Source of the DNA: Rhodobacterales bacterium HKCCSP123
GTDB taxonomy: Bacteria > Pseudomonadota > Alphaproteobacteria > Rhodobacterales > Rhodobacteraceae
Assembly (NCBI GenBank): GCA_015689745.1
Contig: WVSO01000021.1
Coordinates: 1-45,555, forward strand
Direction: 5' to 3'
Length of the DNA stretch: 45,555 bases
The stretch's first letter is position 1, and every line of letters begins with the position of its first letter. Below the pieces are notes generated by a model. The model saw only the letters and a program-made list of their open reading frames with translations. It did not search any database and was not told the origin of the DNA. The position numbers were made by a program, and so were the translations under genes. Shown piece by piece: positions 39,232 through 42,817 of this stretch.

Positions 39232-39390
39232 ATGATGCCCGATCTCGGAACCTACTCGGTGCCCGTCCTGTCTTCCTACGCGGTGTCGCTGGGGCTGCTC
39301 GTCGCGGTGGTGGTCGCCTCGATCTGGAAGGCGCGCCGCGTCCGCGCCCGGCTCGAGGAGGTGGAGAGCCGCCGGGGCCGCGCGACATGA
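39232..39390 (+). CDS. ccmD: Heme exporter small protein CcmD
   Basis: 52 residues, too short to attract most gene finders. MMPDLGTYSVPVLSSYAVSLGLLVAVVVASIWKARRVRARLEEVESRRGRAT-type layout: a short N-terminal stretch with the conserved Tyr residues, one membrane helix (about 13-33) and a basic, helical cytosolic tail. CcmD stabilises the CcmABC-CcmE complex. It lies 2 nt after the ccmC stop with AGGAAAGGA upstream, and its own stop overlaps the ccmG ATG (ATGA). Confidence 0.93.
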   Translation: MMPDLGTYSVPVLSSYAVSLGLLVAVVVASIWKARRVRARLEEVESRRGRAT

Positions 39391-39986
39391 GGATCAACTG
39401 GCTCATGGTGATTCCGCTGGCCCTTACGGTCGGCTTCTTCGGCATCGCGGGCTACCAGCTGTCGAACAACCAGAACGCCCTGCAACAGGGGGTGGACACC
39501 CAGGCGCTGCCCTCGGCCCAGCAGGGGCGCGCGGCGCCCGACCTGTCGCTGCAGCCCTTCGCCGACACGCCCCTCCTGGCCCGCGCGGATCTCGAGGGCA
39601 ACGGGCTTGTCGTGGTGAACTTCTTCGCCAGCTGGTGCCCGCCCTGCCGGGCCGAGCACCCGACGCTGACCGCGCTGGCCGAGGCGGGCGTGCCGCTCTA
39701 CGGCGTGAACTACCGCGACCGGGTCGACCAGGCGCTGAGCTTCCTGTCGGAGCTCGGCAATCCCTACGACCGGATCGGCCGCGACGAACAGGCCCGCAAC
39801 GGTGCGAACTGGGGCGTGGTGGCGATGCCCGAGACCTTCTTCATCGACGACACCGGAACGGTGGTCCTCCACTTCCGCGGCCCGGTGACCGAGCGGGCGC
39901 TGCGCAACCAGATCCGCCCGGCGCTGGCCGAGGCGGGGCACGAGCTGCCACTCTTGCCGGGGGAAGAGGCCGCCGGCACGAACTGA
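39387..39986 (+). CDS. ccmG: Thiol:disulfide oxidoreductase CcmG/DsbE
   Basis: 199 residues. One N-terminal membrane anchor (about 5-24) is followed by a periplasmic thioredoxin domain with the active site ASWCPPCRAEHP (Cys near 84 and 87), GVNYRDRVDQALSFLSELGNPYDRIGRDEQARNGANWGVVAMPETFFID (cis-Pro and the CcmG-type acidic surface) and a Gly-rich end. It reduces apocytochrome c or CcmH disulfides for heme ligation. It is the last gene of the ccm run; the palindrome array begins 52 nt after its stop. Confidence 0.96.
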   Translation: MRINWLMVIPLALTVGFFGIAGYQLSNNQNALQQGVDTQALPSAQQGRAAPDLSLQPFADTPLLARADLEGNGLVVVNFFASWCPPCRAEHPTLTALAEAGVPLYGVNYRDRVDQALSFLSELGNPYDRIGRDEQARNGANWGVVAMPETFFIDDTGTVVLHFRGPVTERALRNQIRPALAEAGHELPLLPGEEAAGTN

Positions 39987-40038
39987 CCCATCCGCACGGC
40001 GAAAAGGCCACCGGGACGGCCAGACCCATCCCCGCGCG

Positions 40039-40126
40039 GCAGGCCTTTGCAAAGGCCTGCACCAGAGCCTTGCAAGGCTCTGGCCACGTCCTTGCAAGGA
40101 CGTGGCCGGTCTCTTGCAAGAGACCG
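40039..40126. repeat. Array of four perfect palindromes centred on TTGCAA
   Basis: Four adjacent perfect palindromes lie between convergent ccmG and the MarR-type gene. Unit 1 (40039-40060) has arms GCAGGCCT/AGGCCTGC around TTGCAA; unit 2 (40062-40083) CCAGAGCC/GGCTCTGG; unit 3 (40084-40105) CCACGTCC/GGACGTGG; unit 4 (40107-40126) CGGTCTC/GAGACCG. The TTGCAA centres are at 40049.5, 40072.5, 40094.5 and 40116.5, so spacing is 23, 22 and 22 bp. Arms differ from unit to unit yet each is fully self-complementary, which means that the dyad itself, not the arm sequence, has been kept. It can be read as RNA hairpins with a self-complementary UUGCAA apex or as protein-binding dyads two helical turns apart. 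Confidence 0.9.
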
Positions 40127-40149
40127 CTTCGCCGCCAGGTCGCCCCATG

Positions 40150-40165
40150 CCCGCGCAGGCGCGGG
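40150..40165 (-). terminator. Small GC stem-loop after the MarR-type gene
   Basis: CCCGCG (40150-40155) pairs with CGCGGG (40160-40165), loop of 4 nt, starting 11 nt after the stop (40176) on the minus strand. There is no U-tract, so its efficiency as a terminator is doubtful. Confidence 0.35.
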
Positions 40166-40175
40166 ACGCCCCGCC

Positions 40176-40670
40176 TCAATAGATATACCTGATCTGGTCG
40201 GACCAGAACCGTTCGATCCGCCGGAGCGAGTGGTTGACCCTGTCCACGCTGTCGGTGTTGAGCACCCCCTGCATCTCCAGCCCCTCGGCATGGCGCGCGA
40301 AAAGGCCCGCGACCGTGTCGCGCACGTGCTGACCCTTGCCCGTCAGCCGCACCCGGACCGAGCGGCGGTCGATCTCGCAGCGCTGGTGGTGCATGTAGCC
40401 CATCTCGACCAGCTTCTTGAGATTGTAGGAGACGTTCGAGCCCTGGTAGTAGCCGCGCGACTTCAGCTCGCCCGCCGTCACCTCGTTCTCGCCGATGTTG
40501 AACAGCAAGAGCGCCTGCACCGCGTTGATGTCGAGAATGCCCAGCCGCTCGAACTCGTCCTTGATCACGTCGAGCAGAAGCCGATGCAGCCGCTCCACGA
40601 GCGACAGGCTGTCGAGATACCCGGCCAGGAAACCGGACCGGGTCGTCGCATGGGGCGCGTGCATACTCAT
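40176..40670 (-). CDS. MarR-family transcriptional regulator (LdtR/PetP-like)
   Basis: 164 residues: a winged helix-turn-helix with DINAVQALLLFNIGENEVTAGELKSRGYYQGSNVSYNLKKLVEMGYMHHQRCEIDRRSVRVRLTGKGQHV (about 50-120), including the recognition helix QGSNVSYNLKKLV and the beta-wing EIDRRSVRVRL, flanked by dimerisation helices. It resembles the LdtR/PetP group of alphaproteobacterial MarR proteins; the assignment is from memory of the motif, not a search. ATG 40670 has GGAG 8 nt upstream. It lies 83 nt after sdhE on the same strand. Confidence 0.88.
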   Translation of the reverse strand: MSMHAPHATTRSGFLAGYLDSLSLVERLHRLLLDVIKDEFERLGILDINAVQALLLFNIGENEVTAGELKSRGYYQGSNVSYNLKKLVEMGYMHHQRCEIDRRSVRVRLTGKGQHVRDTVAGLFARHAEGLEMQGVLNTDSVDRVNHSLRRIERFWSDQIRYIY

Positions 40671-40753
40671 GATGGGCTCCGAATCTTGGGCGGGTGACAC
40701 CCTCAATGGCCCAGGATTCGGAAAGATTGGGTTAAGCCCGACCGACCGGCGGC

Positions 40754-41023
40754 TCAGCGCCCCACTTCGTGCCCGCGCAGCTCCTCGGCCAGCACGGCCA
40801 TGAAGGGGCGCAGCCCCTCGGGCGGCTCGGCCTGCCCGGAGACCCACTGGTAGAGGTCGTGATCGGCCTCGGCCAGGACCGCCTCGAAGGCGTCGAGCGT
40901 GGCGTCGTCGGCCCCCTCGAGGTTGCGGTCGGCCCAGCCGCCCAGGATCAGGTCCATCTCCTTGATCCCGCGGTGCCAGGCCCGCATCCGCATCCGCTTC
41001 AGCCGTGTTTCCCGTGTTTCCAT
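40754..41023 (-). CDS. sdhE: Succinate dehydrogenase flavin assembly factor SdhE
   Basis: 89 residues, family-typical length. The RGxxExD motif is RGIKEMDLILGGWADRNLE near residue 18-25, followed by ALDAFEAVLAEADHDLYQWVSGQAEPPEGL, the standard SdhE sequence. It promotes covalent FAD attachment to SdhA. ATG 41023 is preferred, with GGGGG about 11 nt upstream; GTG 41032, overlapping the upstream stop (GTGA), is an alternative. It is tightly linked to the XRE-type regulator gene. Confidence 0.93.
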   Translation of the reverse strand: METRETRLKRMRMRAWHRGIKEMDLILGGWADRNLEGADDATLDAFEAVLAEADHDLYQWVSGQAEPPEGLRPFMAVLAEELRGHEVGR

Positions 41024-41479: not shown

Positions 41480-42748
<1,269 letters not shown>

Positions 42749-42793: not shown

Positions 42794-42817
42794 GAGGGCC
42801 CGCCATGGCGGGCCCTC
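42794..42817 (+). terminator. Terminator-like palindrome after aspC
   Basis: GAGGGCCCGCC (42794-42804) and GGCGGGCCCTC (42807-42817) form an uninterrupted 24-bp palindrome 46 nt after the aspC stop, followed by TTGCC. The rest of the gap up to 43192 (about 375 nt) holds no gene or convincing promoter that I can support. Confidence 0.65.

What the first reader, a model, noticed from the sequence alone, without database searches (positions are those of the whole stretch)
40039..40126. Four tandem perfect palindromes that share a TTGCAA centre but not their arms
Seen directly: four palindromes of 20-22 bp sit side by side with centres 23, 22 and 22 bp apart. Every centre is TTGCAA, every arm set is different, and every arm set is fully self-complementary. 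Independent drift would break palindromes, so selection or a copying process keeps the dyad itself. They lie between two convergent stops (ccmG and a MarR-type gene). Two readings: (a) RNA hairpins whose UUGCAA apex is self-complementary, so loops could kiss one another or other RNAs; (b) DNA dyads placed two helical turns apart for cooperative protein binding. I know of no named element with this layout.
Basis: partly seen in the sequence, partly recalled or inferred. Interest (0 to 1): 0.75.

Follow-up and report, generated by a model that had tools for sequence, protein, structure and literature searches.

The report
Four-hairpin punctuation at gene ends
The four side-by-side DNA palindromes are one copy of a family of mostly four-hairpin elements that sit just behind genes in some Roseicyclus-type bacteria, and they keep near-perfect mirror symmetry and the same centre while their arms change freely, the reverse of what is reported for ordinary hairpin terminators.

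Summary
Most are four abutting palindromes of about 22 bp centred on TTGCAA. Of 62 arrays examined (32 distinct loci), none lies between divergent genes, about half lie between convergent ones, and 54 start within 15 bp of a stop codon.

Across 42 four-unit arrays, 344 base-pair cells are changed on both sides and 2 show a G-U. At orthologous sites both arms change together (53 double, 11 single changes). The centre is TTGCAA in 225 of 227 units. Arms within one array are more unlike each other than random draws.

Best explanation (about 0.5): bidirectional hairpin punctuation that forms or protects mRNA 3' ends. It is not a canonical terminator (no T-rich tail in 123), and no REP transposase was found in 13 genomes. 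Not settled: the near-absence of G-U pairs and the palindromic apex suggest that the dyad is also kept at the DNA level (cruciform, protein or strand-switch copying). My searches of an open-access library listed no description of it.

The parts
40039..40060 (.). palindromic unit 1, 22 bp, centre TTTGCAAA
40062..40083 (.). palindromic unit 2, 22 bp, arm type GGCTCTGG; its inner six bases GGCTCT are the commonest arm (or tied for it) in the three genomes counted
40082..40107 (.). palindromic unit 3, 26 bp, arm type GGACGTGG
40107..40126 (.). palindromic unit 4, 20 bp, arm type GAGACCG
40039..40127 (.). whole four-unit array; matches the covariance model of the family at 98.2 bits on + and 92.2 on - (the window is one of the 42 rows the model was built from, so this match is by construction)
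39387..39986 (+). CcmG/DsbE thiol:disulfide interchange protein, ends 52 bp before the array
40176..40790 (-). MarR-type regulator (LdtR-like; start codon uncertain), stop codon 49 bp beyond the array

Best explanation
The array is a gene-end punctuation element. It is transcribed at the 3' end of one mRNA, or of both where genes converge, and each unit folds into its own hairpin with the same apex (UUGCAA). Four stable hairpins directly behind the stop codon would make RNA polymerase stop or release without a U-tract and/or block 3'-5' exonucleases, so that the same DNA defines the 3' ends of both convergent transcripts. The palindromic apex gives both strands the same hairpin. The arms may drift in sequence as long as they stay complementary and stay unlike the arms of neighbouring units, which avoids mispairing and deletion between units. 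Shown: placement, number, covariation, near-invariant centre, mutual unlikeness of arms. Inferred: transcription, termination or 3'-end protection, and recognition of the apex by a factor.
For: Placement: of 62 arrays 32 are convergent, 27 tandem, 0 divergent, 3 undetermined. In 32 distinct loci: 16 convergent, 14 tandem, 1 mixed, 1 undetermined, 0 divergent; P = 3e-6 against gaps of 90 bp or more, 0.004 against all gaps; 54 of 62 arrays lie within 15 bp of a called stop codon. Outside the genus, 14 of 15 arrays, and 8 of 9 examined places in G364, have a gene ending towards them. Structure: 24 of 28 pairs covary and 344 of 1176 cells are changed on both sides, 0 of 500 shuffles reach this cell count. 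At orthologous sites arms co-change. Both strands fold into four hairpins. Arms within an array are less alike than random. A second family with another sequence (GGAAAAC-NNNN-GTTTTCC, up to four units about 22-24 bp apart) also sits at gene ends, 9 of 9 places looked at.
Against: No T-rich tail in 123 array ends. Almost no G-U pairs, also in tandem arrays where only one strand is a gene's sense strand: 1 of the 6 broken pairs listed for tandem arrays is a sense G-U, so selection on one RNA strand is not enough. Arms vary and the apex is fixed, the reverse of what is reported within species for terminator repeats (PMC13155455, passages seen). Five genomes (G001, G004, G007, G008, G009) have no array at the ccmG-marR junction. 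Seven tandem arrays leave only 10-28 bp before the next start as called (starts are uncertain), too little for a promoter. The window's own array lies 49-52 bp from its stops, further than most. No transcript data were available.
Confidence: 0.5

Rival explanations
1. DNA-level dyads: the arrays act as double-stranded or extruded palindromes (cruciforms, or operators for a dimeric protein that contacts TTGCAA and the CTGG arm ends), for example as a transcription roadblock or nucleoid site between genes.
For: Watson-Crick covariation with 2 G-U among 1176 cells. Apex fixed in 225 of 227 units (the arrays were found through two neighbouring CTTGCAAG, so part of this is by choice) and in 33 of 35 units found with the centre left open. 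Centre-to-centre spacing 22 or 23 bp in 155 of 165 intervals and unchanged in 71 of 81 orthologous intervals. In family 2 the centre varies but is palindromic in 57 of the 75 listed of 308 hits, against 1 in 16 by chance (hits may share ancestry).
Against: A protein site does not need self-complementary variable arms. 22-23 bp is the unit length rather than two exact turns. None of the 31 placed loci lies between divergent genes. Units with a mutated centre keep paired arms (L028, L056; HP3 of G364), as a hairpin would.
Confidence: 0.22
2. Dispersed palindromic repeat kept perfect by its own mutation process: units are copied around the genome, and strand-switching of DNA polymerase at the palindromic core rewrites one arm from the other (quasi-palindrome correction). 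They survive mainly at gene 3' ends because they do harm elsewhere.
For: Double changes outnumber single ones, 53 to 11 over three overlapping genome comparisons, as if both arms changed in one step. Very similar copies of a 2+2-hairpin element with degenerate flanks occur in genome G364. A like unit order recurs at four G000 loci, L023, L032, L037 and L040 (by eye). Template switching that turns imperfect into perfect inverted repeats is documented in yeast (PMC3820800, passages seen).
Against: 16 of 21 array rows in G000 have a G010 orthologue at the same site, so present movement is slow. No Y1/REP transposase match in 13 genomes. In the closest comparison, G000-G010, double changes hardly exceed single ones (9 to 6). 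Copying alone does not fix TTGCAA, the number four, or arms unlike each other. A deletion hybrid with mismatched arms persists in G010 (L063).
Confidence: 0.2
3. Loop-loop kissing: the self-complementary UUGCAA apices pair with each other within one RNA or between the two convergent mRNAs, tying the 3' ends together.
For: Apex self-complementary in family 1 and in most listed family-2 hits.
Against: No test of loop pairing was made here; UUGCAA has only two G-C pairs; any perfect palindrome has a self-complementary apex.
Confidence: 0.05

Closest known systems
Hairpin-cluster intrinsic terminators (Gupta and Pal 2021, PMC8355165; abstract, first part of Results, poly-U section and a word search seen)
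   Same: Several hairpins less than 15 nt apart behind stop codons, poly-U said not to be necessary.
   Different: There two-hairpin clusters are the commonest and larger ones fall off exponentially; palindromy, covariation and bidirectional use are not words in that paper. Here usually four units, one near-invariant palindromic apex, arms covarying almost without G-U, and mutual unlikeness of arms.
Bidirectional terminators and uptake-sequence hairpins between convergent genes (Kingsford 2007, PMC1852404; passages seen)
   Same: Inverted repeats enriched in tail-to-tail regions.
   Different: No T-rich tails; TTGCAA is not scattered singly as an uptake sequence would be (5 copies in 45.6 kb, 4 in the array).
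REP / BIME / REPIN elements (PMC3733652, PMC8266576, PMC3116915: search listings and starts of abstracts seen)
   Same: Short extragenic palindromes in many copies.
   Different: No Y1-type transposase match in the genus; self-symmetric units, arms not conserved in sequence.
Catalogue of 92 stem-loop repeat families in 40 bacterial genomes (PMC2267715; abstract and outline seen)
   Same: Intergenic repeated families that fold as stem-loops.
   Different: Not compared family by family; I did not check whether any member resembles this one.
Palindromic repeats of organelle genomes (Volvox, PMC2670323, passages seen; sponge mitochondrial RHE, PMC2800124, start of abstract seen)
   Same: Intergenic hairpin repeats, in Volvox with a recurrent loop sequence.
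   Different: In Volvox they make up most intergenic DNA and are inserted into one another; here arrays of near-fixed number at gene ends, kept at orthologous sites.

Membership tests
Canonical intrinsic (Rho-independent) terminator | GC-rich hairpin | tested here: met
   four hairpins on both strands, z -6.8 and -7.2
Canonical intrinsic (Rho-independent) terminator | T-tract after the hairpin | tested here: not met
   0 of 123 array ends have 5 T in 8 nt within 10 nt; control 3 of 1230
Hairpin-cluster terminator | two or more hairpins less than 15 nt apart, downstream of a stop codon | tested here: met
Hairpin-cluster terminator | RNA 3' ends located at the cluster | not testable with these tools
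   no RNA-seq or Term-seq data at hand
REP/REPIN | associated Y1-type (RAYT) transposase | tested here: not met
   PF01797 in 0 of 13 genus genomes (some incomplete); control rings in 5 of 14 named genomes
REP/REPIN | asymmetric tag (GTAG or CGTC) at one end | tested here: inconclusive
   units read are self-symmetric and I saw no such tag, but I ran no formal scan
MITE | terminal inverted repeats around the element | tested here: not met
   left and right 25-nt flanks of Roseicyclus arrays pair no better than swapped flanks, permutation p 0.58-0.66. In G364 the flanks look like inverted repeats by eye but were not scored
MITE | target-site duplication at filled versus empty sites | not tested
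   five genomes lack the array at the ccmG-marR junction; no base-exact comparison was made
DNA uptake sequence | many single copies scattered over the genome | tested here: not met
   TTGCAA outside the defined arrays: 5 of 80 (G000), 11 of 85 (G010), 8 of 74 (G011) in the fetched stretches, most of which were chosen at arrays; 1 of 5 in the 45.6-kb window
Known RNA family (Rfam 15) | score above gathering threshold | tested here: not met
   window 39700-40500: only three sub-threshold matches with E 0.09-0.37

The most novel reading that the evidence does not exclude
A self-correcting punctuation element: arrays of typically four DNA palindromes in which a fixed palindromic core (CTTGCAAG) both presents a recognised apex on either transcript and seeds strand-switch copying that rewrites one arm from the other, so that gene-end hairpins stay perfect while their sequences turn over and stay mutually distinct.
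Probability: 0.2. Interest if true: 0.85.

Novelty: new variant of a known kind. Interest (0 to 1): 0.62.

Why it matters
For terminator repeats in bacteria it is reported that arms are conserved and spacers vary (PMC13155455, within species, passages seen). Here the centre is fixed and the arms vary in Watson-Crick concert, at many orthologous sites in sequenced bacteria, two of which are named isolates. That gives a natural data set for two open questions: how GC-rich alphaproteobacteria end transcripts without U-tracts, and whether perfect palindromes are kept by selection or by template-switch copying.

Tried and rejected
Uptake sequence, REP/RAYT, MITE with terminal inverted repeats, Rfam member: see Membership tests. 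Outer stem closing the whole array: no signal in Roseicyclus; not significant in other genera (16 rows, one locus present twice, p 0.11).

Strict orthogonality of arms within an array: not absolute. One G011 array (L082) carries the same arm twice. The test used arrays of three or more units only (18, 19 and 17). Counting identical pairs instead of mean identity gives weaker P values: 0.029, 0.005, 0.064.

Covariation table: one measure, the number of further pair types, is not above its shuffles (51 against 54.1, 461 of 500 as high).

Gene caller: the first version trained on the wrong strand and put an ORF antisense to ccmG. Discarded and replaced by one trained on high third-position GC, which recovers ccmG, the MarR gene and the aminotransferase. 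Its start codons are uncertain. For other genera and G364 it was used without retraining.

Tree of the genus from two genes: 12 of 13 genomes; the nodes that would place G011 have support of 41 and 46, so one gain or several losses cannot be told apart.

The others are tandem repeats with a short palindromic core and mostly non-palindromic arms. Not the same thing.

Family-wide scan: the reversed control pattern also hits 24 of the 394 genomes once or twice, so a genome with one or two hits is not evidence by number alone; only their palindromic arms are (where 3 of 19 listed loci have none and one locus appears twice; 15 went into).

Rows dropped: L063 (G010) failed the array definition because its first unit is a hybrid. 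Orthologue pairs with unequal unit numbers skipped (0, 2 and 2). L042 left out of alignment A1, which holds 42 of the 43 four-unit arrays. Loci L005 and L006 (one hit each in two other families) not studied. Of the 20 G011 stretches, 7 are a contiguous block taken without regard to hits (though it holds three known arrays); the other 13 were placed at known arrays or at the MarR locus. The array finder tolerated at most 2 of 8 broken pairs in an added unit, so the pairing percentage is somewhat inflated; a single G-U was not excluded.

Literature searches: no paper describing this element in the listings.

Full report
THE OBSERVATION. The four palindromes are in the sequence as described: 40039-40060, 40062-40083, 40082-40107 and 40107-40126, centres 23, 22 and 22 bp apart, every centre TTGCAA, every arm set different. 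The third is 26 bp, not 20-22. Only 13 perfect palindromes of 14 bp or more occur in the window. RNA folding gives four hairpins on either strand, z -6.8 and -7.2. The array lies between a ccmG/dsbE gene and a MarR-type gene, tail to tail.

A FAMILY, NOT A SINGLETON. The pattern CTTGCAAG-N10-20-CTTGCAAG occurs 37 times in the window's own genome G000, with 0 in the reversed control. In the 12 other genomes of the genus it occurs 37 times in G003, 37 in G010, 70 in G011, 2 in G001 and 0 in eight. A covariance model of the four-unit array, built from 42 arrays of which the window is one, finds 53, 52, 54 and 62 matches in G000, G003, G010 and G011 (both strands counted, so about 26-31 places each), 11 in G001, 3 in G007 and 0 in seven others; at most 150 candidates per genome were scored. 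Contig lengths equate G010 with Amp-Y-6 and G011 with KMU-115. In the family at large 22 of 394 genomes, the own one included, have at least one pair; G364 has 59, G222 6, G098 4, the rest 1-3. The reversed control hits 24 of the 394 genomes once or twice, so low counts alone mean little. In one search, two of 24 genomes from other families had one hit each.

ANATOMY. I defined 62 arrays with 227 units in G000 (21), G010 (20), G011 (18) and G003 (3). 43 arrays have four units, 2 have five, 11 have three and 6 have two. Spacing is 22 or 23 bp in 155 of 165 intervals. The centre is TTGCAA in 225 of 227 units and TTTCAA in 2. The arrays were found through two neighbouring CTTGCAAG, so part of that constancy is by choice; with the centre left open and one common arm fixed, 33 of 35 hits in four genomes still have TTGCAA, the other two TTTCAA or its complement. 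Positions near the stem base are also biased (CAG...CTG), while the positions between vary most.

COVARIATION. On 42 four-unit arrays aligned together, 28 pairs give 1176 cells: 99.6% paired, 24 pairs with changes on both sides, 344 cells changed on both sides, 2 with a G-U and 5 not paired. No shuffle of 500 reaches the count of double-changed cells, the pairing or the covariation score, 1 reaches the number of covarying pairs, 461 reach the number of pair types; slid partners give at most 73 double-changed cells. The finder tolerated up to 2 broken pairs of 8 in an added unit, so the pairing percentage is somewhat inflated, but a single G-U would have passed. At orthologous sites the six arm pairs next to the core show 9 double against 6 single changes (G000-G010), 21 against 4 (G000-G011) and 23 against 1 (G010-G011); these comparisons share sequences. 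At the window's own junction G003 and G010 have four units with different but palindromic arms, G011 has a 2+3 version with a spacer, and G001, G004, G007, G008 and G009 have none. In the remaining three of the 12 loci fetched (G002, G005, G012) no array and no recognisable ccmG end stood in the 260 bases printed.

PLACEMENT. With a gene caller trained on third-position GC, arrays are 32 convergent, 27 tandem, 0 divergent and 3 undetermined. The background in 400 kb of G011 plus the window, arrays included, is 72 convergent, 300 tandem and 72 divergent gaps; for gaps of 90 bp or more it is 25, 94 and 60. In 32 distinct loci: 16 convergent, 14 tandem, 0 divergent, 1 mixed, 1 undetermined. P for no divergent locus is 3e-6 (long gaps) or 0.004 (all gaps), and for the convergent excess 8e-7 or 6e-6. 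54 of 62 arrays begin within 15 bp of a called stop codon (two overlap it); the window's own array is among the eight that do not. No array end of 123 has a T-rich tail. Fifteen arrays from 12 other genera: 14 with a gene ending towards them, 1 divergent (L239). Nine places in G364: 8 and 1, but mostly tens to hundreds of bp from the gene. Nine family-2 places: 9 of 9; the TTCTAGAA pair in L076 likewise.

ARMS AVOID EACH OTHER. Mean identity of arms within an array is 0.467 against 0.522 shuffled in G000 (0 of 2000 shuffles as low), 0.456 against 0.521 in G010 (0 of 2000) and 0.504 against 0.543 in G011 (P 0.008). A likely reason is visible at L063 of G010: where G000 (L039), G003 (L013) and G011 (L089) have four units, two of them with the core CCCTTGCAAGGG, G010 has one unit that joins the left arm of one to the right arm of the other, as after a deletion between the two cores (the orthology of L063 and the deletion are my reading by eye). 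This is also a counter-example to strict maintenance.

A SECOND FAMILY AND A MOBILE-LOOKING COUSIN. Arrays of up to four palindromes with the form GGAAAAC-NNNN-GTTTTCC occur at gene ends too. The single hairpin pattern is in 13 of 13 genus genomes, 308 hits, 0 in the control. Of the 75 hits listed (four genomes, one of them in part) 57 have a self-complementary centre, against 1 in 16 expected (my count from the listing). Pairs of AAAC-NNNN-GTTT gave 14 hits in G000 and 3 in G271 among 295 genomes of the family, five others having one hit each. In G364 seven aligned copies, chosen by their HP1-HP2, show an element HP1-HP2-linker-HP3-HP4 of about 145 bp. HP3 and HP4, which were not used to choose them, are 0.94 and 0.91 identical against 0.69 for the linker and 0.55-0.62 for the flanks. 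In these copies HP3 has a centre other than TTGCAA in 7 of 7, with the seven inner arm pairs intact in 7 of 7.

HOW IT MOST LIKELY WORKS. Placement, mutual unlikeness of arms and covariation speak for hairpins acting at transcript ends; the absence of a U-tract speaks for hairpin-cluster termination (PMC8355165) or for a barrier to exonucleases after Rho termination (recalled, not tested). The near-absence of G-U pairs, in tandem arrays too, cannot well come from one RNA strand alone. It asks for function on both strands, function as DNA, or a copying process that changes both arms at once. I give bidirectional hairpin punctuation 0.5, DNA-level dyad 0.22, copying-maintained dispersed repeat 0.2 and loop kissing 0.05. 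These are not fully exclusive.

WHAT IS KNOWN. Perfect inverted repeats peak behind stop codons in bacteria, and within species those near terminators have conserved arms and variable spacers (PMC13155455, passages); in E. coli the longer such repeats near gene ends are mostly parts of intrinsic terminators (PMC6060812, passages). This family reverses the arm-spacer pattern. Literature searches listed nothing that describes it; most subscription papers are outside that library.

Noticed in passing
L077:9272, L093:2746, L229, L231 and others: Second hairpin family GGAAAAC-NNNN-GTTTTCC, present in all 13 genomes of the genus searched; sometimes four in tandem about 22-24 bp apart at gene ends; the centre is TGCA, TCGA, CCGG or GCGC in 57 of the 75 listed hits.
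   Followed up: partly
L249-L255 (genome G364): Dispersed, very similar element of about 145 bp in another Rhodobacteraceae genus with four TTGCAA-type hairpins in a 2+2 arrangement; flanks look like inverted repeats by eye.
   Followed up: partly
L113, L119, L124 and 24 further loci (MAG Bacteroidaceae Horse_feces99 and Horse_feces95): Arrays of TCCTTGCAAGGA spaced exactly 22 bp (70 of 74 intervals, the other four 33-45 bp) with mostly non-palindromic arms; an apparently unrelated 22-bp tandem design.
   Followed up: partly
L063:2000 (genome G010): Apparent deletion between two units at their shared core CCCTTGCAAGGG, leaving one hybrid unit with mismatched arms.
   Followed up: partly
L239, L247: Arrays in other genera that mix TTGCAA-centred with TTCGAA-centred palindromes.
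   Followed up: no
L076:19038 (genome G011): Pair of palindromes with TTCTAGAA centres between convergent genes, perhaps a third sequence family.
   Followed up: no
window 42794-42817: 24-bp perfect palindrome GAGGGCCCGCCATGGCGGGCCCTC 45 bp behind the aminotransferase gene (41546-42748).
   Followed up: no
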